Source: Bacteroidales bacterium (GTDB lineage Bacteria; Bacteroidota; Bacteroidia; Bacteroidales; UBA932). From it: a stretch of 64,000 nucleotides of DNA. Below the pieces are notes generated by a model. It saw only the letters and a program-made list of their open reading frames with translations, made no database searches and was not told the origin of the DNA. Location of the stretch: the NCBI GenBank assembly GCA_017959005.1, contig JAGDBO010000009.1:62001-126000 (forward strand), in the 5' to 3' direction. Shown in pieces: positions 7,041 to 34,174 of this stretch. Position 1 is the stretch's first letter; each line of letters opens with the position of its first letter. The position numbers and the translations under genes are program-made.

Positions 7041-8264
7041 ATGAAGGGAACAAGTTTCTCCGGATGCCTTCCAAGATTAGAAAGGGCATTCATCTTTTTA
7101 GCACTAGTTGCAACGTTCTTATTTTCACTGTTTTCATGCATTAAGCCGTTGAGTGAAGAGGGAAAAGAGGAGAATCAGAAAGACACCACGGAGGGTAAAG
7201 CCGCCCTCTCGTTTGTTTTGAACAAGGCTTCATTTGACAGCTGCCTTGTTATTGTAGAGGATTTAAATGCAGATAGTTACAGCGGGACTTGCTCCGTTGA
7301 ATCCGGTGCAATAAACAATGTACTGGATTCAACTAAGTACATTCTGACAATTGCAAACAGTTCAGGTGCAGTCTTTTATGAGGGCTTGTATGTGAACCGT
7401 CCGGAGATGCTGTATGTAAAACCGGGCAACTACAAAGTGCGCATTACATCTGAAGAGTTCAAGGAACCTGGAACACTCAGGCCGCTGTTCGGGCAGGAAG
7501 TAACGGTGAAGGCAAAGAAAGACAGCACAATTTGTATCTCATTGCTCTCCAGGCAGATGACAGGAGGCGTCCGCTTTGAATTTACCTCCGGTTTCCTCTC
7601 CTGGTTTAAGGGAACTGGCCTTTATTTAAGCAGAGATACCATATCCTTCAAGTACATTTACGGTTCAAGAGATTATGTCTACTTCTATCCCGGTACCATC
7701 ACCGTAAAGTACAAGAACAAAGACGGTTACCCAACCTACACTCCGCCAGATAAGCCGGGCTATGAAGATACTGTTCTCTTTACCAGGAAGTTGAAGGCAA
7801 CTGAACTTGTAACCATTAAACTTGATTATGATCTTACAAAGGTTCCGTCAACCGGGCTCTCAATGAAGGTGGACACCACAAGGACCAGAGTATCCGAGTA
7901 TTACAACGTTCCCGGCATTGCACCGTACGGCTGTCAATCCGTCTGGTATGCACAGAACCACGTGGGTGATACTTTAAAACTCTTTGGCTACATAGTAGGG
8001 GGAGATGCAACCTCAACATCCTTCAGCAGGGTAAAGCCCTTTAAGTCAAAGACAAACATAGTGGTTGCGGCCAATGACTGGCAGACGCTCAAGGAAAAGA
8101 CAATAGCTATTGAACTCACAGAAGGGCCAATCAGAAACGCCCTCAATCTTGTAGACCATCCTGAACACCTAAAGAAACCCATTGCCATAACCGGCGTCAT
8201 AGTAGACCTTTACTTCGGTTACCCCGGCATGAAAAAAGTCACAGACTACCAACTCCTAAAATAA
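7041..8264 (+). CDS. Lipoprotein with DUF4493-like and OB-fold-like (DUF6359-like) regions
   Basis: The open frame begins at 6969, but the ATG at 7041 is preceded six bases earlier by AGAGGAGG (7027-7034), so I place the start there. The protein (about 407 residues) has a lipoprotein signal ending in L-F-S-C. The first two thirds resembles the Bacteroidales surface domain DUF4493 (G-N-Y-K-V-R-I, then a beta-rich stretch). The last 110 residues (G-Y-I-V-G-G-D-A-T-S-T ... K-P-I-A-I-T-G-V-I-V-D) resemble the OB-like DUF6359 that occurs in secreted Bacteroidales proteins. No catalytic residues are evident. A cell-surface or adhesive role is inference only, and the domain names are from memory of the families. 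Confidence 0.6.
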   Translation: MKGTSFSGCLPRLERAFIFLALVATFLFSLFSCIKPLSEEGKEENQKDTTEGKAALSFVLNKASFDSCLVIVEDLNADSYSGTCSVESGAINNVLDSTKYILTIANSSGAVFYEGLYVNRPEMLYVKPGNYKVRITSEEFKEPGTLRPLFGQEVTVKAKKDSTICISLLSRQMTGGVRFEFTSGFLSWFKGTGLYLSRDTISFKYIYGSRDYVYFYPGTITVKYKNKDGYPTYTPPDKPGYEDTVLFTRKLKATELVTIKLDYDLTKVPSTGLSMKVDTTRTRVSEYYNVPGIAPYGCQSVWYAQNHVGDTLKLFGYIVGGDATSTSFSRVKPFKSKTNIVVAANDWQTLKEKTIAIELTEGPIRNALNLVDHPEHLKKPIAITGVIVDLYFGYPGMKKVTDYQLLK

Positions 8265-24908: not shown

Positions 24909-25748
24909 ATGAAAAGGACCCTTATACTTCTTGCCGCTCTCTTTGTGAGCACCTTCACCTTCAGTCAGAAAGTTGTGGTTCGCGCTGCAAAAGAGGGAGA
25001 TGCAATAATCTCCATTATGACCTACAACATCCGTCACGGCAAGGGTATGGACGGCAAGGTAGACTTTGACAGAATAGCAAAGGAGATCTCCCTTGTCTCT
25101 CCGGATGTTGTTGCTCTGCAGGAGGTAGATGTCAACACCAAGAGAATAGGGGGCATCCCTTCAGACTCTGTAATTGCCGCAAAATCAGGTGGTTATAATT
25201 ATTACTTTGCCTCCGCGATGGATTTTAACGGCGGCCAATACGGCAACGCCGTCCTTTCAAAAACACCTGCCCTCTCCGTAACACCCGTCCCTTTAAAGGG
25301 AACGGAAGAGCCTCGCGTTATGCTTGTTGCAGAGTTTGAGAACTACTTCTTCTGCTCACTTCACCTCTCCCTGGATTCTCTCAGCAGAATTGAGGCCTGC
25401 AAAACTATCTGTGAGACTGCAGAAAAGATGGCAGACGGCAAACTCTTCTTCATTGCCGGAGACTTCAATACATCAGTCTCTTCCGTTGAGATGAACATAC
25501 TGCTCAACCACTTTGATATTCTCTCTCCATACCAACTTAAGACCTTCCCTTCAGACAAACCGGACCGGACTCTTGATTATGTAATGGTTTACAAAAACTC
25601 TAAGGGTAAGAGACTTGTAAGAGAGCTCAACTTCAAAAAGACCCTCTCCTCCTGGGTTCAGCCGGAGCCAATGGCATCAGACCACCGCCCGGTCTTTGTT
25701 GTAATCATCAAAGGAGACCTCCTCTACAGCGCCACTGTAAAAGAGTAA
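24909..25748 (+). CDS. Secreted endonuclease/exonuclease/phosphatase-family protein
   Basis: This 279-residue protein begins with a signal peptide (M-K-R-T-L-I-L-L-A-A-L-F-V-S, cleavage near F-S-Q). The EEP fold is shown by M-T-Y-N-I-R-H-G-K-G near residues 38-47, A-L-Q-E-V-D near 73-78, the L-H-L-S-L-D strand, A-G-D-F-N near 182-186 and S-D-H-R-P-V near 259-264. All catalytic Asn, Glu, Asp and His positions are present. Substrate could be nucleic acid, sphingolipid or an inositol phosphate; Bacteroidales carry many such secreted proteins. It is 11 bases after uvrA and may be cotranscribed. Confidence 0.82.
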   Translation: MKRTLILLAALFVSTFTFSQKVVVRAAKEGDAIISIMTYNIRHGKGMDGKVDFDRIAKEISLVSPDVVALQEVDVNTKRIGGIPSDSVIAAKSGGYNYYFASAMDFNGGQYGNAVLSKTPALSVTPVPLKGTEEPRVMLVAEFENYFFCSLHLSLDSLSRIEACKTICETAEKMADGKLFFIAGDFNTSVSSVEMNILLNHFDILSPYQLKTFPSDKPDRTLDYVMVYKNSKGKRLVRELNFKKTLSSWVQPEPMASDHRPVFVVIIKGDLLYSATVKE

Positions 25749-25997
25749 ATTGAAAAGTGCTTCGATGGCTACTTTGGCCTTAAAGGCCGCACTATGCCTT
25801 GTCCGATTGCCCTTCATAAAGGTTGAAGTTATTAAGATTTGTTAAACTTAACCCGTGGTCTGTTTTTTCGGTACCACTACAGTAGTACTGAATATATTCA
25901 TTAATACCTCTTCTTAGAGCCTCAACATCGTCTTGAGGGTTTGTAGTGGTCCCATGGTCTGTTTTCATGGGACCACTATACTCAATCACTATTATAA
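25749..25997. other. Non-core gap with hairpins and a doubtful 65-codon ORF
   Basis: This 249-base AT-rich stretch lies between convergent genes. It has a perfect 13-base hairpin at 25944-25978 and a related weaker one at 25855-25877. A minus-strand ORF at 25792-25989 encodes 65 residues in which S-G-P-M-K-T-D-H-G and S-G-T-E-K-T-D-H-G repeat, because it translates the two hairpins. I see no family match and no ribosome site that convinces me. It may be debris of an earlier RHS tip or immunity gene. Confidence 0.4.
25944..25978. repeat. Perfect 13-base inverted repeat
   Basis: TAGTGGTCCCATG (25944-25956) and CATGGGACCACTA (25966-25978) are exact reverse complements around the loop GTCTGTTTT. 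The loop plus right arm resembles 25856-25879 (TGGTCTGTTTT ... ACCACTA), so the element occurs as a diverged pair. There is no T tract after either arm, so a classical terminator is unlikely. Confidence 0.8.
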
Positions 25998-26471
25998 TTA
26001 TAAACCGTATTGTGAAATAATTGAATCAGGTGGGTGTTTTATCCTATTTTGGGGCTTAATTAAGTAACGACCAAAAAGGTTATTTGCTCTATAGATAGAG
26101 TAGTGTACATTTCTTTTTGGTACTATTTCTTCATTATTAGGAAGACCAATTCCAACAATACCAAGATTCCAAATCATAGGCACTCCAAAAATGGAATCGT
26201 GAGGAAATACTTTCTTGAGTTCAAAATTATAATAATGTCCAACTTTAATCCTTGTAGCATCCTGGTTTATAGGGGGATTATCCTTTGAACTCATTATCAA
26301 ATAAGTAGAATCTCCTTTTTCAGCGTATATGAGATATACAGATTTTTTCTCCTTTATGCGTATTACTTTGTAATGACTTTTGAGAAATACTCTAACATTA
26401 CTTCTCGTAAAAAACGAACAAGATCCTAATAAGATGATTAATAATGAAAAAACGATTGATAGACCTCTCAT
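25998..26471 (-). CDS. Small lipoprotein, candidate immunity protein of the RHS tip
   Basis: I do not recognise a family. The 157-residue product has a lipoprotein signal (I-I-L-L-G-S-C-S-F-F, lipobox cysteine at residue 18) and a soluble domain with several aromatic strands. It starts seven bases after the stop of the RHS gene on the same strand and shares its AT-rich composition, while the RHS core does not. A small, unrelated gene immediately after a polymorphic-toxin tip is the standard place for the cognate immunity gene. An envelope-anchored immunity protein would suggest a toxin met in the periplasm. That function is inference. Confidence 0.6.
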   Translation of the reverse strand: MRGLSIVFSLLIILLGSCSFFTRSNVRVFLKSHYKVIRIKEKKSVYLIYAEKGDSTYLIMSSKDNPPINQDATRIKVGHYYNFELKKVFPHDSIFGVPMIWNLGIVGIGLPNNEEIVPKRNVHYSIYRANNLFGRYLIKPQNRIKHPPDSIISQYGL

Positions 26472-26478
26472 ACTATTA

Positions 26479-29400
26479 TTATTTTCTAGGATAAGTTTGT
26501 ATAATTGTTATATCCTTACCATTTTCTATATACCATTCCACTTGATTTGCCTCATACATATTATCCGTTATTTCTCCATTGTTGTAATATCGATTTTTGA
26601 TAGTGTGTTGTTTTCCGGCTTTTCTGTGGGCTTCTTTGAAAGTTCTATTGTTTGATTCGGAATAGGCCGGGGAAGCATCTTGTTTAGTACTTTTTGAAAT
26701 CTCTGCTCCAATAAAGGCTTCAGTAAGTTCATGCCATATTGATTGTCCAGGTGTTTCAAAAAATTCATCAATTGTATCTAAAATTCTTGTATTAACAAGC
26801 TGAAAAGCATCTACAACGGTCTCTCCTAATTGATTGGTTGAAACTCTATTCCCCATGAATGCTCCACCAATGAATATATTACCTTCAGGTGTTTTTTCTT
26901 CATCAGTAGTTCCCATTACAACAAATACGTCATTTCTATCAATCATTTTGGCCATTGTTTTAACAATCCCCCTTAGCTTTTCTCTATTCTTCTCATAAGA
27001 GACTTTTCCTTCTGGATTTATAGATAACGTTATTGACTTACCAACTTTTTCCTGCAACTGCAAGAGAGCTTCAAAAGAGTACTCCCCAATTATTGTCAAA
27101 GAGTCACCGATTATATCTGTGAATAATATAGGATTCCCGCTGCAGTAGTTGTACGGTGTGAGTGTCAGATATTTCTCTGCTTTTGGATCTATAGCCATCC
27201 ACCTTGCTGTAACGGGGTCGTATTGCCTGAACCCATAATCCAGGTAGTCTGTCCCTGCCACGGTTTGGATTTCTTTTCCGTTGTAAAGGTCTCTTTTTGC
27301 CTGTGTTGCAGAGACTCTGTTTGGATAGAGCGCATTCAGTGAAGTGTTTATTGTAGGGTAGCTTTCTCCCTGGTTTGTTTGCAATCCGAACGGATAGTAG
27401 CTGTTCCTCTCCAGTATGTTTCCCTGGCTGTCACTTACTGCTCTTGTGCTTCCCAGATGATCCTTTACCAGGAATAGAGTTGTGTAAGAAGTATTTGTGG
27501 AAGCTCCGCTCATCTGCCTTACAGCTAAAATCCTTCCGCTTTCAGCCTCAGCGCTTTCCAGGTATTCTTTTGTGGTGTTGTTTGAAGCGTCTACCTCCAA
27601 TGTGAACGGTCCTACGTATGCTCTTCCGTTTCCGTCTTTGTCTATGACCTTGTACTTTGTACCGTCTGCCAGATAGGTGTAATTGGAAAGCAGAGTGTCG
27701 TTTCTGGAAACGGTCTTGACCTGGTTGTTCAGGTCGTATGTCATGACAACGTTTCTTAAAGCATCCTTTGTCATGTTCCCGTTTCCGTCATAGAGATACT
27801 CCCCGGTCCCAGCCAGATGTCTTATCCTGTTTCCCGTATAAGAGTAAGTGAAGTCATCTTTAGGGTTGGATGCGTTCTCACTGAACCTTCTGAGTGTAAG
27901 TATGTTTCCGTTACGGTCATAGGAGAGGTTTTTCTCTGTGAACGTGTCAGAAGATGTGGTACTTGTACCGATGTACCTTACCCCCTGCGTTAGCCGTCCC
28001 TGGCCGTCATAGGAGAAGGCATAAGAGCTTCTGCTCTCCGTGCTACCCGGATTTGTCCAGTCACTTGCGTCTTTCCACTGACTTGCCTCCCACTCCGTTA
28101 TGAGTCCGTCATACGATTTTGCAGTAGATGCTTTTACTGCATCATGATAACGTAGCGTCTGAGAGTAGAGGTTATAGTTGTAAGCCGGTTCACTTCCTTT
28201 CTTCAGTATGTCACTCTGAGAGTTTATCCAGCCTTGTATGTTGTAAGTGAGGCTGTTCTCCAATACCGGTGTTGCCGTAGACGGATTGAGTGAAGCGGAA
28301 CCCTGCGCAGCTGTCTTTCCTCTTTTTGTATTAACCAACCTTCCGAGGTTGTCATAGCTGTAATTTACTGCGGCGTATGTGTCTGAACTGTTGTTCAGAT
28401 CTGCCGTAGCTGTGAGTTTTCTTGCCCGTGAGTCGTAAGTAAATGTCTGAGTGAGCGTGTTCTCGCTCTCCTGGAGAGTTGCATTGGTTCCCACAGAGAG
28501 TGTCTGCACGCTCCTTAGGTTGTTCCCTACAAAATCATAAGAAGCGGAACTTCTCAGAAGTTCTCCGTCCGGCATCTTAGTGACCGTCTGAATTGTCCTT
28601 CCTTTTTTGTCATAGAAGTAACTCTCTTCCCTGTATCTTCTCAGATTCGGTGTCATGCTGCTTGAAGAGAGGTCCAACACTTTTGAATATGTTAAAAGTC
28701 CTTTTACCCTGCCGTCCACGTCATTACTTGTAACTGTGCCTGTTACCGGTGAGAAGGCCAGCGCTGCCGGTGCACTCTTCCCGTACTCGGAGTAAGAGAG
28801 GAGGGTGTTCTGCTGGTCGCTAAAGATCTGCGGGTAAGGTGTTTGGAAGGCTGTCTCCACTTCCGCTCTTGTCTTCTGCGCAGATAGGTATGTAGCCGTC
28901 ACTCTGGAAAGTGAGTCATAACGTGTTAAAATCCAGCGGTTCTCTTCTCTGAGCAAGGAGTCCTGCGTTGCCACACTCCTTCCTGCCGGGTCATACACAA
29001 TGAATTCCCACCCTTTCCCCGGTATCTTTTTCTCAGAGACTCTTCCCAATCCGTCATAGTTGTAAAGGAAGGCAAAGAGTATGGCTGTAGAGTCCGAGTT
29101 GGCTATGGTATAAGGATTTGCAGCAGAGCTGTTTGCCGCCAAGGTTTTTACTCTTGCCGTTCCTTCCGGCTGAATGACCCACCTTAGCTGCCTTCTTCCG
29201 TCATAGACGTAGTAAGTCTCACTGATGCTGTTACCCGTTCCGCTCTGAGCAAGGTAAAGTGTCCCTTCCGAGTCTTTGAACTCCGTAGACACCCTCCCGT
29301 CCGGAGAGGTAATGGTGTTCTTGAAAAGTTTTCCTGCTGAAAGATAGCCTTTTACCGTCAGTACTCCGTTTTCATTGCAGGACATATCTAAAACCTCGTT

Positions 29401-31110
29401 GCTTGCGTTGGCATCATAACTGAAAGCAGAATAGTGGTTTACCCCCGTGCTCACAGCTCTGAACGCCGCTCCCGGAGTATATTCCTTCTTTACCCTGTTC
29501 AATGGAGATGATTCATACTCTTTCTCTGTAAAGGCAAAGGCGGCATCACTGCTTCCGTAGAGTGAGTTATAAAACGCTTGCTGTGAAGAAAGTGGCGTCT
29601 CTTCCGGTCTTGGTGAAGCAAAGGAAGAGACCATAGGCAGATAGCTTTTTGCATCCTCTCTTCTCATCACGTCATACCAGATAGGCGTTACTATGTTCTT
29701 CCCGTTAGGTGCTGCTGCCACATTTACCGTCTGGGCGGGATATCCCAACCCGTCATAGTAAGTTACGTCCAATATGTATGACTGTGCATTGGCAGAGGTG
29801 AAAGACTGCTTTAGTATCCAGTTTTCTCCCAGTACCGCCACCCCTTCGTTTACCGTTAGGCTTCCCTTCATCAGCTTTTGTAGCCCTTTATAAGAGGCTG
29901 CAACGGCGTATTTTCCGGAAGCGTCCGGTATGTTGAAGCGTAGGGTATCTCCGTTTCCCACTCTGGTGTTCCCGTACGGAACGCCGTCTTTTAGGAGCGT
30001 ATAACGTACCCTGCACTGCGAGCCTTCTAGAATGATAAACCCTGGTGTTGCGTTTCCCTCCGGGAATGTTACGTTGAAGGCGTTGAGCGCTCCACCTCCG
30101 GGTTGAGAGAAGATTATCTCCGATGCGTTCTGATTCTTAAAGTAGGTGTTATTGTTTATTGTGTTGTAAGATATGTTCGGTCCGCACTCAGCGGTGATGG
30201 TGACATAAGAGTCGTTGGGAAAAGCTCTTTGATAGGAGAGGTTTATTGTGCTGTCCCACGTTGTGGCCTTTCCGCTGTTATAGAAGTTTATTATGCGGTT
30301 CAGAACGCTGTCCTGCGCGGCAGTTACGGCATAAGTGAAGGATATTTTCCCTCCGTCTTTGCTGAAGGTGTAGGGGTTAGGGGAGAGGGAGCAGTTGCGC
30401 TGCGTGTCATAGAACGGATGCCACTGTACCGTTCTGGTTCCGTTCATCAGCACTTCCGTAGGGTAATAAGCTATGCAGTAGTATGCTCCGGGGAGGGTGA
30501 TTGGGAATTTCAGCTGACGGTTTCCCTCGCTCTTTCCGTTTACATCTGCAACTGTAATCGTGTAGCCCAGAGAGTCTTTCAGGAGCCTGTAAGAGGCGAA
30601 TCCGTCCGAACTGCTGAGAATCAGTGCGTTCTTTCCTCCATGGAGAAGATAGAGTGCTGATACGTTCGGCAGCAGCGTATATACGTTTGGAGTGTGAATG
30701 TCCTGGTAAATGACGGCCGAGGCGTTACTTGCCGTGATGGTCACCTCCCGCATCTCTGTTCCGTTATTTGCTGCGAAAGTAAGGTTGAGGTCCGCCTCAT
30801 AGATTCCTTCTTGGTTAGTAAGGAAAACCTCTGTGATCCAGTCCTCTGCACCGTTATAAGCTATCTGATTTTCAATAGAGGAAATGAGTGTTGCGGCATT
30901 GAATCCGTTATTGCTGAGAATATGAATTACCGCCGTCTCTCCGTTTGGGCTGAGATAGATCTCCTGCTCGTCAATATAATCAATGCTTATGGTTATCTCA
31001 AACTGAGAGGTCTGGGCAGAGAGGGTTGTTCCCGGCTTAAGGAGCCAGAGAGCCATCATCAAAAAGAAAGCTCTTATAAGTAAGGAATTATATGATTTAA
31101 TCTTCTTCAC
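26479..31110 (-). CDS. RHS/YD-repeat protein with variable C-terminal tip
   Basis: This 1543-residue secreted protein has a GTG start and a signal peptide (residues 1-33). A beta-rich N-terminal third is followed by a DUF6443-like block (Y-Y-D-G-L-G-Y-P-A-Q near residues 450-460), many YD repeats (about 650-1150) and the RHS core (D-H-L-G-S-T-R, Y-P-F-G, Y-L-D-Y-G-F-R-Q-Y-D-P, ending P-Y-N-Y-C-S-G-N-P near 1318-1326). Residues from about 1327 form a separate AT-rich tip with W-H-E-L-T-E-A-F-I-G-A (H1460, E1461, E1464) and a later E-A-H-R-K-A, a pattern I have seen on other Bacteroidales RHS tips. RHS shells encapsulate a toxin or effector. Activity of this tip is unproven; metal-dependent hydrolysis is only suggested by the His/Glu pattern. 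Confidence 0.85.
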   Translation of the reverse strand: MKKIKSYNSLLIRAFFLMMALWLLKPGTTLSAQTSQFEITISIDYIDEQEIYLSPNGETAVIHILSNNGFNAATLISSIENQIAYNGAEDWITEVFLTNQEGIYEADLNLTFAANNGTEMREVTITASNASAVIYQDIHTPNVYTLLPNVSALYLLHGGKNALILSSSDGFASYRLLKDSLGYTITVADVNGKSEGNRQLKFPITLPGAYYCIAYYPTEVLMNGTRTVQWHPFYDTQRNCSLSPNPYTFSKDGGKISFTYAVTAAQDSVLNRIINFYNSGKATTWDSTINLSYQRAFPNDSYVTITAECGPNISYNTINNNTYFKNQNASEIIFSQPGGGALNAFNVTFPEGNATPGFIILEGSQCRVRYTLLKDGVPYGNTRVGNGDTLRFNIPDASGKYAVAASYKGLQKLMKGSLTVNEGVAVLGENWILKQSFTSANAQSYILDVTYYDGLGYPAQTVNVAAAPNGKNIVTPIWYDVMRREDAKSYLPMVSSFASPRPEETPLSSQQAFYNSLYGSSDAAFAFTEKEYESSPLNRVKKEYTPGAAFRAVSTGVNHYSAFSYDANASNEVLDMSCNENGVLTVKGYLSAGKLFKNTITSPDGRVSTEFKDSEGTLYLAQSGTGNSISETYYVYDGRRQLRWVIQPEGTARVKTLAANSSAANPYTIANSDSTAILFAFLYNYDGLGRVSEKKIPGKGWEFIVYDPAGRSVATQDSLLREENRWILTRYDSLSRVTATYLSAQKTRAEVETAFQTPYPQIFSDQQNTLLSYSEYGKSAPAALAFSPVTGTVTSNDVDGRVKGLLTYSKVLDLSSSSMTPNLRRYREESYFYDKKGRTIQTVTKMPDGELLRSSASYDFVGNNLRSVQTLSVGTNATLQESENTLTQTFTYDSRARKLTATADLNNSSDTYAAVNYSYDNLGRLVNTKRGKTAAQGSASLNPSTATPVLENSLTYNIQGWINSQSDILKKGSEPAYNYNLYSQTLRYHDAVKASTAKSYDGLITEWEASQWKDASDWTNPGSTESRSSYAFSYDGQGRLTQGVRYIGTSTTSSDTFTEKNLSYDRNGNILTLRRFSENASNPKDDFTYSYTGNRIRHLAGTGEYLYDGNGNMTKDALRNVVMTYDLNNQVKTVSRNDTLLSNYTYLADGTKYKVIDKDGNGRAYVGPFTLEVDASNNTTKEYLESAEAESGRILAVRQMSGASTNTSYTTLFLVKDHLGSTRAVSDSQGNILERNSYYPFGLQTNQGESYPTINTSLNALYPNRVSATQAKRDLYNGKEIQTVAGTDYLDYGFRQYDPVTARWMAIDPKAEKYLTLTPYNYCSGNPILFTDIIGDSLTIIGEYSFEALLQLQEKVGKSITLSINPEGKVSYEKNREKLRGIVKTMAKMIDRNDVFVVMGTTDEEKTPEGNIFIGGAFMGNRVSTNQLGETVVDAFQLVNTRILDTIDEFFETPGQSIWHELTEAFIGAEISKSTKQDASPAYSESNNRTFKEAHRKAGKQHTIKNRYYNNGEITDNMYEANQVEWYIENGKDITIIQTYPRK

Positions 31111-31115
31111 AATAA

Positions 31116-31135
31116 CTTATCTTGTCTTATCTTGT
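31116..31135. repeat. Tandem 10-base duplication across an RHS stop codon
   Basis: CTTATCTTGT occurs twice head to tail (31116-31125 and 31126-31135). The second copy contains the stop codon of the partner RHS gene on the minus strand, and the first lies in the 16-base gap before the next GTG start. Confidence 0.75.
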
Positions 31136-34100
31136 AACGGTCTGATAATAATATCTCTCCAGCGGGTTTAGGTCTTCATCCAAGATGTAGTTCAGCCTCT
31201 GAGCCTGATCGTATGTATAATGTGTTACCCTTCCTGTAGGGTCTGTCACCTGAGCCGGTAGTCCGTAAGCATGCCATTTATACCACGATACCTCACATTG
31301 CGGAATTGCGTTTTTTATAGAAGCCGCTCTTGCTTCTACATTCTCCTCAGTGGTAGAGCTGAAACAGGTGCTTCCTAAGATGTTCGTTATCTGCTCATTA
31401 GTGGCATTATCAATCCTCATGGCAACCCCTTTATTGTTGTTATACCAGATGAATGTTGTTGAAATGGCGTTTGCATCTGTTTTTTGAATGATATTTCCCT
31501 GACTGTCATATGAGTATGTGGCATATACTTTCCAGCTGCCGTCATTTACGTTGCGCTTGAGCCATTGTGTAGGGAGATATAGTGTGCGGTTTTCAGTCCC
31601 TGTTATGGCGCTGAAAGTAAGTGAGTCACAACTTATTATCTTCTCCTGCTGGGAGTCATGTTGTCTTACCTTCACCGTCACTCTTACCGGACTGGTTATA
31701 TGGTTTGCTGTGATCATTGCCTGCTGAACGGCCGTTCTGGCAGCCGCAGGTATCTCCGAGATGAAGATATATGATGTTGTAATTCTGTCTCCGTTGGAGA
31801 GGGTTTTCGTCTCCTGGATTTTTTGTCCGTTGCTGTTATAAGTGGATGAGACGTAGGATGTTGGATCTCCTGAATTGAAGAAGTCTTTTTCCGATGTCTG
31901 TGAAGGGCGGAATTCGGCCGTCTGCCTCTGAATCTGAGCTATAGCCTCTCCCACGTAAATGGTTTCATAGAACGCCGGCTTTCCTTCTTCTACTGCAAAA
32001 GATGTCTGAGAGGAATGGAGGAGGTTCCCCTCTGAATTGTAAATCTCTGATTTCTTTTCTCTTCCTCGTTTATGCTGCTGGCTGGAAGTAGGGCAGAGTA
32101 TGTTATGAACCGCCGTTGCACCGCTTCCGGTTCCGTTTGCTCCTCGGATCTGCATATAAGAGGCCTGATTTTGAAAACCGTCATTGTAACTATGCAGAAT
32201 GGACATAAAATCTCCTTCTACTATATCATCCGGGTAATCGTCCCAATCGGTAAAGAAGTGTACCACTTTGGATTTATCCGGCAGTATCTCTTCTACCCTG
32301 CTGTATTCCACCGGTGTAGCCTCGTAGTTGGATATACCTGAAGAAGAGGCGAGTTGGACGTAAATTGTATGATTCGTCAGATAACCCGAGTAGTTCAGTA
32401 CGTAACGCGGGTATACCAGGAGCGATCCGCTGGTTGTGCTGCTTGCTGCCAGGGTATAACGGTAAGAAGTGGTATCTGTAGGAATCCCGTTTTCATCTAT
32501 GTTGATTATCTGCGAAATACGGCTTCCCGGTCCGGTTGCTAGAAATCCTGGAGACGAGGCATCCATGGTAGGGGAGAAGAAGTTAGAAGATTTCTTACGT
32601 AGGTTCCTTCTTACGGTGTTGCTCTCGTAAACCAGTTCTGTGCTTCCTCCTGTAGGATACGTAATTTTTTTCATAATACCGATGGAAGAGCATCCGCTGT
32701 TTGCGTTTCTGTATGAACTTACCGTCTCGTCAAAGCTGTTGGGTTCCTGTGTGCCGAGTTGGTTGAGTGCTATGGTGTTATGATTCATGTTCGTTGAATC
32801 ATTCCTATTGAGGAAACCCCAGTGGTCTGTGGCCGTAGTGCCGAAGGCCGGGAAGAAGCTCTCTTCAAGCCCTTCATAATCAAAGGTGTATCTACCCACC
32901 TGCTCAATATCTACACTTGAAATGAATGGATACGTGTTTCCGACTTTGTTGAAGATGTAGCTTATACCCATAGACCCGGCGGGAGTCTTTATGCTGTCCA
33001 AAAGAAGGTAGGAATACACTGCATTCATATCTCTTCTGTTTGAGCCGTTCATGTAAGACCCTTGCTTTCCGTTAGGCTTGGAGAGGTAAGTGAACTCAAT
33101 AGACTCTCCGTTAGAGAAGTCAATGCTGCTGAGATAACTGGCTGTGTTATGCTCCTCGTTATATTGGAGCATAGAAACAGGGTCTTCATTTGTCTCCCAT
33201 GAAAGCCAAAGGTTTGTGCTGTAACTGACTATATCTGAATAACCATCGTGAGTGTTATATCTGAATAAAGCGGCAGCACCGTCCGGACTCTCTATTGTGC
33301 TGAGCAGGAATGCGGTAGCACGGTATGTGGAGTGTGCCTCGGGATTCTCTTTGTCATACCCCTGAGGTATGTTTCGTTCAATAAAGTTGAACTTTCTCTC
33401 TGTTCCCTGGCTTTGCGTATCCTCTCCTCCAAAGATATATCGGTACCCGTCAGATGTGGTGATGATGAACTGAGAGGAGACATTTCCGCTGCCGTCACCG
33501 TACGGCGTGTTTATCTTCTCTATTTTGTAATTGCCGTCAAATGAGGATGTGTGAAAGACTGTAAAAGAGCCGTCTGTGTTTCTGTAGAAAGAGCCGCTGT
33601 GCCCCGGAAAAGAGAAGTGGTAGATATCCGGCGTAGTCTCGTAAAGAGTCATAAGATTGTTGGGCCCTTCCAATTCATAGGCTGTCTTTAGCACGTTTCC
33701 CGGAGTAGGTCTGTTGACTACCTCATAGGTAGGCATAGGTAAGTAACTGACTATAGGTAGATAATCAAATCCGAGCACATCTCTGGCACTCCAGGAAGTA
33801 GAGGTTGAATAATTGAAAGAGCCTTGCAGTTCATCCGGGATACCTCTGACTTCTCTTGTTATGCTGCCGGCGCAGCTAAGTGTCCATCCCAGGCCCAGGA
33901 TACCGGTCTGCCGGTTAGGAATCAGACCGTTATAGCTGTAATCCAGAGAGATAGGAAGAGTAAAACGGCTGTTGCGGTAGGTATAAATGGGAACAGTAAC
34001 GGATACCTTACCTGTATAGAGTTGCGGAGTAAGTTTGCCATAACGAGTCATCTCACTTGCCTGAACGGAAGGCTTATCCGGCTCGTTGACAAGGGTGAGC

Positions 34101-34174
34101 TGGGCGTAAGATGTTAAAGGATAGAATCCTATGAGACATAGGATTAAAGTAAGGGTTCTGAAGATTGTTCTCAT
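31127..34174 (-). CDS. RHS-partner YD-repeat secreted protein
   Basis: This 1015-residue protein has a signal peptide (cleavage near S-Y-A-Q, residue 25). Its N-terminal half has the Bacteroidota pattern P-Q-L-Y-T-G-K-V-S-V-T-V-P-I-Y, then L-P-I-S-L-D-Y-S-Y-N-G and G-L-G-W-T-L-S-C-A-G-S-I-T-R, which resembles the SpvB/TcB-like beta-propeller entry of RHS shells. The C-terminal end carries YD repeats (T-H-Y-T-Y-D, D-P-T-G-R-V) and stops without core or tip. It is cotranscribed with the full RHS protein 16 bases downstream. The two together probably build the secreted shell, or the first acts as a scaffold. Exact role unknown. Confidence 0.8.
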   Translation of the reverse strand: MRTIFRTLTLILCLIGFYPLTSYAQLTLVNEPDKPSVQASEMTRYGKLTPQLYTGKVSVTVPIYTYRNSRFTLPISLDYSYNGLIPNRQTGILGLGWTLSCAGSITREVRGIPDELQGSFNYSTSTSWSARDVLGFDYLPIVSYLPMPTYEVVNRPTPGNVLKTAYELEGPNNLMTLYETTPDIYHFSFPGHSGSFYRNTDGSFTVFHTSSFDGNYKIEKINTPYGDGSGNVSSQFIITTSDGYRYIFGGEDTQSQGTERKFNFIERNIPQGYDKENPEAHSTYRATAFLLSTIESPDGAAALFRYNTHDGYSDIVSYSTNLWLSWETNEDPVSMLQYNEEHNTASYLSSIDFSNGESIEFTYLSKPNGKQGSYMNGSNRRDMNAVYSYLLLDSIKTPAGSMGISYIFNKVGNTYPFISSVDIEQVGRYTFDYEGLEESFFPAFGTTATDHWGFLNRNDSTNMNHNTIALNQLGTQEPNSFDETVSSYRNANSGCSSIGIMKKITYPTGGSTELVYESNTVRRNLRKKSSNFFSPTMDASSPGFLATGPGSRISQIINIDENGIPTDTTSYRYTLAASSTTSGSLLVYPRYVLNYSGYLTNHTIYVQLASSSGISNYEATPVEYSRVEEILPDKSKVVHFFTDWDDYPDDIVEGDFMSILHSYNDGFQNQASYMQIRGANGTGSGATAVHNILCPTSSQQHKRGREKKSEIYNSEGNLLHSSQTSFAVEEGKPAFYETIYVGEAIAQIQRQTAEFRPSQTSEKDFFNSGDPTSYVSSTYNSNGQKIQETKTLSNGDRITTSYIFISEIPAAARTAVQQAMITANHITSPVRVTVKVRQHDSQQEKIISCDSLTFSAITGTENRTLYLPTQWLKRNVNDGSWKVYATYSYDSQGNIIQKTDANAISTTFIWYNNNKGVAMRIDNATNEQITNILGSTCFSSTTEENVEARAASIKNAIPQCEVSWYKWHAYGLPAQVTDPTGRVTHYTYDQAQRLNYILDEDLNPLERYYYQTVTR

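What the first reader, a model, noticed from the sequence alone, without database searches (positions are those of the whole stretch)
26482..27135. RHS C-terminal tip with an H-E-L-T-E-A motif, possibly an uncharacterised toxin family
After the RHS core ends near residue 1326, about 215 residues form an independent domain with W-H-E-L-T-E-A-F-I-G-A (H1460, E1461, E1464), a downstream E-A-H-R-K-A and several aromatic strands near the end. I have seen this pattern on other Bacteroidales RHS proteins, but I know of no tested activity. The His/Glu spacing is not the canonical zincin HExxH, so a different metal site or a non-protease function is possible.
Basis: partly seen in the sequence, partly recalled or inferred. 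Interest (0 to 1): 0.72.

Follow-up and report, generated by a model that had tools for sequence, protein, structure and literature searches.

The report
RHS toxin tip with lipoprotein immunity
A gut-type bacterium carries, on the end of a large RHS protein, a swappable domain that is probably an antibacterial toxin of a family not listed in the databases searched, next to a lipoprotein that is probably its antidote; an unusual His-Glu...Glu...His motif suggests a metal-dependent enzyme acting in the cell envelope.

Summary
In detail: H1460, E1461, E1464 lie on a separate ~207-residue C-terminal tip of a 1543-aa RHS protein. The tip has only chance-level matches in Pfam, NCBIfam, PHROGs, PADLOC and PDB sequences. 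It belongs to a family of Bacteroidota RHS tips (20 loci in named genomes). In a 29-member alignment H1460 is kept in 28, E1461 in 28, E1464 in 29, H1495 in 28. At 32 of 35 tip loci the neighbouring gene belongs to one family of small, mostly exported proteins (18 of the 32 built the model, six others are weak). Similar RHS cores in the genus carry other tips; tip and partner gene have 34% and 31% GC against 48% for the rest of the RHS gene and are over 99% identical to a rumen MAG beside a diverged stretch of core. Best reading: an unlisted polymorphic toxin-immunity family acting outside the cytoplasm, perhaps a metallohydrolase with an HExxE...H site. Enzyme class, metal and toxicity are inferred; structure prediction was off, and no link to M91 zincins was found.

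The parts
26479..31110 (-). RHS protein, 1543 aa; signal-like N-terminus (by eye), DUF6443 at aa 437-559, RHS core at aa 1270-1335
26482..27102 (-). C-terminal tip domain, aa 1337-1543 (207 aa), probable toxin
   Evidence: chance-level library matches only; homologous tips on other RHS proteins
26719..26733 (-). HELTE: H1460, E1461, E1464
   Evidence: 28/29, 28/29, 29/29 conserved
26626..26628 (-). H1495 of the Y/FxxAH motif, putative third ligand
   Evidence: 28/29 conserved; the one member lacking it (L034) also lacks H1460
26848..26868 (-). GGAFMGN (aa 1415-1421), glycine-rich motif
   Evidence: position; G1420 29/29, G1416 28/29
25998..26471 (-). 157-aa lipoprotein, probable cognate immunity protein
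   Evidence: same family next to the tip at 32 of 35 tip loci; LGSC lipobox; the window member has no Pfam or NCBIfam match
25990..27680 (-). block (end of RHS core, tip, immunity gene) that stays 90% or more identical to L032 beside a diverged stretch of core; approximate, possible exchange unit
   Evidence: which block moved is not certain
31127..34174 (-). upstream RHS-repeat protein, 1015 aa, ending 16 bases before the tip-bearing gene; possible partner of the RHS shell
   Evidence: PF05593 and TIGR01643 matches

Best explanation
Residues ~1337-1543 are the toxin tip of an RHS polymorphic toxin, and the next gene (25998-26471) is its immunity lipoprotein. Shown by sequence: a modular tip, one recurrent partner gene family, foreign base composition of both, and a fixed H-E-x-x-E ... 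H set. Inferred: the RHS shell delivers the tip to related cells; the tip is a metal-dependent hydrolase in which H1460, E1464 and H1495 bind the metal and E1461 is the general base (an HExxH-like layout with Glu in place of the second His); it attacks a protein or peptidoglycan target in the periplasm, where the exported immunity protein blocks it.
For: The four residues are kept in 28, 28, 29 and 28 of 29 members, while the best Cys, Asp, Lys and Arg columns reach 2/28, 17/29, 14/27 and 8/26. L034 loses H1460 and H1495 together, as expected for one site. Nine same-genus ORFs (two from the own genome) carry other tips on cores 44-71% identical. Partner gene at 32 of 35 tip loci and in 1 of 61 other loci. 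16 of 18 partner proteins have a strongly hydrophobic N-terminus and 12 of 18 a lipobox-like Cys (counted by eye from its table). Tip 34.4% and partner 31.0% GC against 47.7%. Tip and partner 99.2% and 99.6% identical to L032 beside core at 64-80%. Tip and partner distances correlate, r 0.47, 0 of 9999 permutations as high (shared descent not removed).
Against: No link to any zincin: hhalign with M91 tips Prob 1.4 (wrong register) and 0.3; the consensus matches M91 only at E 2.3, behind four unrelated families. HExxE is not an established zinc motif in what I read. L015 has HAALE, lacking the supposed base. One Ser column reaches 21/29, so a Ser role is not excluded by conservation alone. L014, a divergent member, has 1263 bases downstream and no partner found. 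Six of 14 independent partner matches are weak, E 0.0019 to 0.064. By eye, exported small proteins also follow unrelated tips in this genus, so export may be general. The L032 mosaic is ambiguous: core identity rises again to 87-100% in the last ~190 aligned bases. Toxicity was not tested.
Confidence: 0.5

Rival explanations
1. It is a polymorphic toxin tip with cognate immunity, but not a metallohydrolase: the H/E set is a non-metal active site (for example general acid/base on peptidoglycan glycan or lipid) or a structural core.
For: No zincin similarity by any search made; Glu in place of the second His in 29 of 29; one member has HAALE.
Against: Two His and two Glu in HExxE...H spacing; the other conserved polar positions are few: Q1437 27/29, N1440 25/29, N1421 22/29, and Tyr at positions 1466 and 1491 in 26 and 25 of 29 (Phe in the window). 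A metal site is the simplest reading.
Confidence: 0.3
2. It is a relative of the M91/HopH1-like zincin tips that has swapped the second metal His for Glu, possibly inactive as a peptidase and acting as a binder or decoy.
For: M91 tips occur in the same order, and an M91-like tip (by eye) sits on a similar core in the same genus (L098). The consensus aligns over 118 residues with M91 positions 27-135, E 2.3. A second HExxE tip family with an N..R motif (L020, L053) gives hhalign E 1.1e-4, Prob 29.5 (global) and E 0.0038, Prob 8.7 (local) with this family; reversed controls 0.32 and 0.57.
Against: Direct profile comparison with M91 fails for both families. The second family is two sequences, one of them found through this family's profile, so the link is selected. 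Strict conservation of E1461 and H1495 argues against loss of function.
Confidence: 0.12
3. The tip is a structural or adhesive end of the RHS protein and the lipoprotein a surface partner, with no toxic function.
For: No toxicity data; RHS proteins can have other roles (general knowledge).
Against: Other tips on similar cores, recurrent partner gene, tandem tip/partner pairs in L041 and a spare partner domain in the window's own genome (L097).
Confidence: 0.08

Closest known systems
RHS polymorphic toxin systems (Zhang et al. 2012, PMC3482391, passages read)
   Same: RHS core, variable C-terminal tip, immunity gene just downstream
   Different: this tip family has no Pfam/NCBIfam match; the terms HExxE and HExE do not occur in the held text, which is the first 300,000 of 357,715 characters
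Peptidase_M91 / HopH1-like tips (PF14891)
   Same: RHS-borne tip, HE-helix motif, similar size; occurs in the same order
   Different: M91 tips fetched here have invariant HExxH plus EN..R (A7); here HExxE plus AH; no profile similarity
Tox-MPTase1-5 zincin-like toxin tips (PMC3482391, passages read)
   Same: small RHS-borne predicted metallopeptidases
   Different: listed there with HExxH or HEELH; no Pfam match to any such family here
Second HExxE tip family (L020, L053), found here
   Same: RHS tip, HExGE motif, some profile similarity
   Different: N..R and YDxxH motifs instead of AH; only two members seen

Membership tests
RHS polymorphic toxin | RHS repeat-associated core directly upstream of the tip | tested here: met
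   TIGR03696 at 1270-1335 in the window protein. In relatives judged by eye; the ORFs of L018, L019 and L025 start inside the tip and L005 at its edge
RHS polymorphic toxin | tip varies while the core is conserved | tested here: met
   9 ORFs in 8 fetched same-genus loci, cores 44-71% identical over 66-275 aligned residues, none with a convincing match to this tip; 2 of 30 core-bearing loci match it, the window and a re-fetch of L004
RHS polymorphic toxin | cognate immunity gene immediately downstream | tested here: met
   partner family at 32 of 35 tip loci; 18 of the 32 built the model, 6 of the other 14 weak
RHS polymorphic toxin | tip is toxic and neutralised by the immunity protein | not testable with these tools
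   bench assay needed
Zincin metallopeptidase (HExxH) | HExxH motif | tested here: not met
   HExxE, E1464 in 29 of 29
Zincin metallopeptidase (HExxH) | zincin fold | not testable with these tools
   structure prediction switched off; no PDB sequence relative
Zincin metallopeptidase (HExxH) | third metal ligand downstream of the helix | tested here: inconclusive
   H1495 in 28 of 29; position in space unknown
Peptidase_M91 (PF14891) | score over Pfam gathering cut-off | tested here: not met
   no M91 match for 10 members (E up to 1) and 8 more (E up to 10); consensus 9.0 bits against 25
Peptidase_M91 (PF14891) | profile-profile similarity to M91 tips | tested here: not met
   hhalign Prob 1.4 and 0.3

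The most novel reading that the evidence does not exclude
A new clan of envelope-acting metallohydrolase toxins whose catalytic metal is held by His-Glu-His (HExxE...H), with a new class of periplasmic immunity lipoproteins, some fused into multi-immunity proteins.
Probability: 0.3. Interest if true: 0.72.

Novelty: new member of a known kind. Interest (0 to 1): 0.52.

Why it matters
It adds a toxin tip and an immunity family, both without a match in the searched family libraries, to the weapons of Bacteroidota. If the HExxE...H set binds metal, it would be a variant of the commonest metalloprotease motif kept across a whole family. Tip and antidote are small and directly testable.

Tried and rejected
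Named-family searches of tip and lipoprotein gave nothing convincing. Weak single-member hits that I set aside: tip family, TIGR04078 E 0.0032 in 1 of 14; partner family, LolB1_Flavo 4.6e-4, FTN_0290 lipoprotein 6e-4, PRK08651 7e-4 and Pfam DUF5425 0.0036, each in 1 of 18, none in the window member, and a PDB hit at 0.019. No confirmed relative in viral contigs (pattern scans), plasmids (15, 87) or phages; the lipoprotein gene has no plasmid match. M91 kinship was tested and not supported. The NHEIDHA-type tips (A8) show no link. The second HExxE family gave no match in 198 genomes of the class. T9SS PorV and T6SS TssC were not found in the window's own genome, but the controls were silent and the genome is 86% complete, so delivery stays open. 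'HEXXE' precedents were followed in passages: the M35 paper also writes HEQSH, and three papers give CLCA as HEXXE (84-86) while PMC3650047 treats it as HExxH. Of PMC3890501 only abstract and outline were seen.

Rows left out of the 29-member alignment A6: L014 (divergent; HEILES and a downstream SH visible by eye), L020 and L053 (other family), L021 (contig-end fragment), L029 (near copy of L028), L032 (three residues from the window), L038 (frame broken), L016 (tip identical to L013), duplicates L024, L033, L037, and re-fetches of the window and L004. L018 and L021 are fragments from one genome and may be one locus.

Full report
What is there. The minus-strand ORF 26479-31110 encodes a 1543-aa RHS protein with DUF6443 at 437-559 and the RHS core at 1270-1335. 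The last ~207 residues are a separate tip. H1460, E1461, E1464 and H1495 are at the stated places. A 157-aa lipoprotein gene follows 7 bases after the stop codon.

No known family. The best tip matches are at chance level: Pfam E 0.12, NCBIfam 0.084, PHROGs 0.048, none in PADLOC, PDB 0.22. Ten family members scanned against Pfam, eight further ones (two of its ten proteins belong to another family), 14 against NCBIfam (best 0.0032 in one member) and profiles against PDB gave no convincing hit.

Relatives. tblastn found the tip in 7 of 393 genomes of the order, own genome included. A profile found it in 4 of 395 of the phylum, own included, and 5 of 99 of the family (own included, and one of the five, L020, is a different family). 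A scan of named genomes gave 20 loci out of 102 pattern-matching stretches; three of the 20 repeat contigs already seen. Hosts include Bacteroides faecichinchillae, four Flavobacterium, Moheibacter, Mesonia, Xanthomarina, Hymenobacter, Flavihumibacter and rumen MAGs. No confirmed relative in viral contigs, plasmids or phages.

Conservation. In 29 aligned tips (A6) H1460 is kept in 28, E1461 in 28, E1464 in 29, H1495 in 28, Q1437 in 27, G1420 in 29. The best Cys, Asp, Lys, Arg, Ser and Thr columns reach 2/28, 17/29, 14/27, 8/26, 21/29 and 19/27, so a Cys nucleophile or a PD-(D/E)xK-type site is unlikely and a Ser nucleophile less likely. L034 has lost both histidines, and L015 has Ala for E1461.

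Partner gene. The next gene belongs to one family (A5, 18 members) with a core YxIYAxxNDSxFKIIS...LYxAxNLxGLCL and no convincing Pfam or NCBIfam name (weak single-member hits are listed under Tried and rejected). With its profile (10 bits or more, same strand, within 700 bases), 32 of 35 tip loci have it. Eighteen of the 32 built the profile. Of the 14 others, eight have E below 1e-3 (one is a near copy of L028, one of the window) and six lie between 0.0019 and 0.064, two of these with identical tips. The three without are L009 and L021 (contig ends after 121 and 34 bases) and L014. Of 61 loci without this tip, one (L097) has a match. By eye, 16 of 18 members have a strongly hydrophobic N-terminus and 12 of 18 a lipobox-like Cys; L025 and L037 have doubtful starts. 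An exported antidote points to an envelope target, with the caution that exported small proteins follow other tips too.

Modularity and mobility. Nine same-genus ORFs (two from the own genome) have cores 44-71% identical up to the same boundary and then other tips. Single-sequence searches of those tips with the A6 profile gave E 0.004-0.097 in eight of nine and nothing in one, and BLAST a 34-residue match at single-subject E 0.003 in L099; I take these as chance. Of 30 core-bearing loci from 98 genomes of the family, only the window and a re-fetch of L004 carry this tip. GC is 34.4% (tip) and 31.0% (partner) against 47.7% (rest of the RHS gene) and 45.6% (window); 4 of 317 windows of 633 bases are as low, which may include the cassette itself. 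Against L032 (rumen MAG RGIG8120) the tip is 99.2% and the partner gene 99.6% identical at DNA level and the core 64-80% from about 27.68 to 28.73 kb; the core then rises to 87-100% for the last ~190 aligned bases, and on the other side the alignment ends at 25882. So the locus is a mosaic, and whether tip and partner or the core stretch moved is open. The tip differs in three residues of 207.

Mechanism. The most economical reading is a metal-dependent hydrolase: H1460 and E1464 one helix turn apart, H1495 about 30 residues on, E1461 as base. This is inference. Profile comparison with M91 tips from the same phylum failed, and Pfam M91 scored the consensus only at E 2.3, over 118 residues, behind four unrelated families. 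A second, rarer tip family with HExGE (L020, L053) may be a remote relative (hhalign global E 1.1e-4, Prob 29.5; local E 0.0038, Prob 8.7; reversed controls 0.32 and 0.57). Searches for HEXXE listed M35, CLCA, mucus and one clostridial paper (the last seen as a listing only); the passages read do not establish an HExxE zinc enzyme. PMC3650047 reports that zincins which lose the second His mostly have Lys, Arg or Leu there (passage), so a fixed Glu is unusual.

Prior description. Listings of six library searches (at most 20 titles each) and passages of PMC3482391 showed no description of this tip. Most subscription journals are not held, and supplements were not read.

Noticed in passing
L097:963-2009 (own genome, contig C18) and L032:3301-4392: About 350-aa lipoproteins whose C-terminal part is this immunity domain (46 and 58 bits) behind another N-terminal part; L097 follows a different RHS tip. 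They look like multi-immunity proteins.
   Followed up: partly
L020:1213-1806 (-) and L053:1471-2148 (+): A second, rare RHS tip family with HExGE, an N..R motif and YDxxH.
   Followed up: partly
L098, L099, L100, L102: Same-genus RHS cores with other tips: M91-like (HEMAH), papain-like, and two mutually similar unnamed tips, all judged by eye.
   Followed up: no
L041:5998-6582 and 7601-8212: Two different copies of the tip, each followed by its own partner gene, in tandem in Flavobacterium circumlabens.
   Followed up: no
L034:933-1580: Member that lost both conserved histidines (SEVTE, AN) but keeps its partner gene; possibly an inactive toxin.
   Followed up: no
25720-25850 (-): Remnant resembling the start of an IS3-type transposase OrfA (RHSAAFKAKVAIEALF), by eye, just beyond the partner gene.
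   Followed up: no
31127-34174 (-): 1015-aa RHS-repeat protein ending 16 bases before the tip-bearing gene, perhaps the other part of the shell.
   Followed up: no
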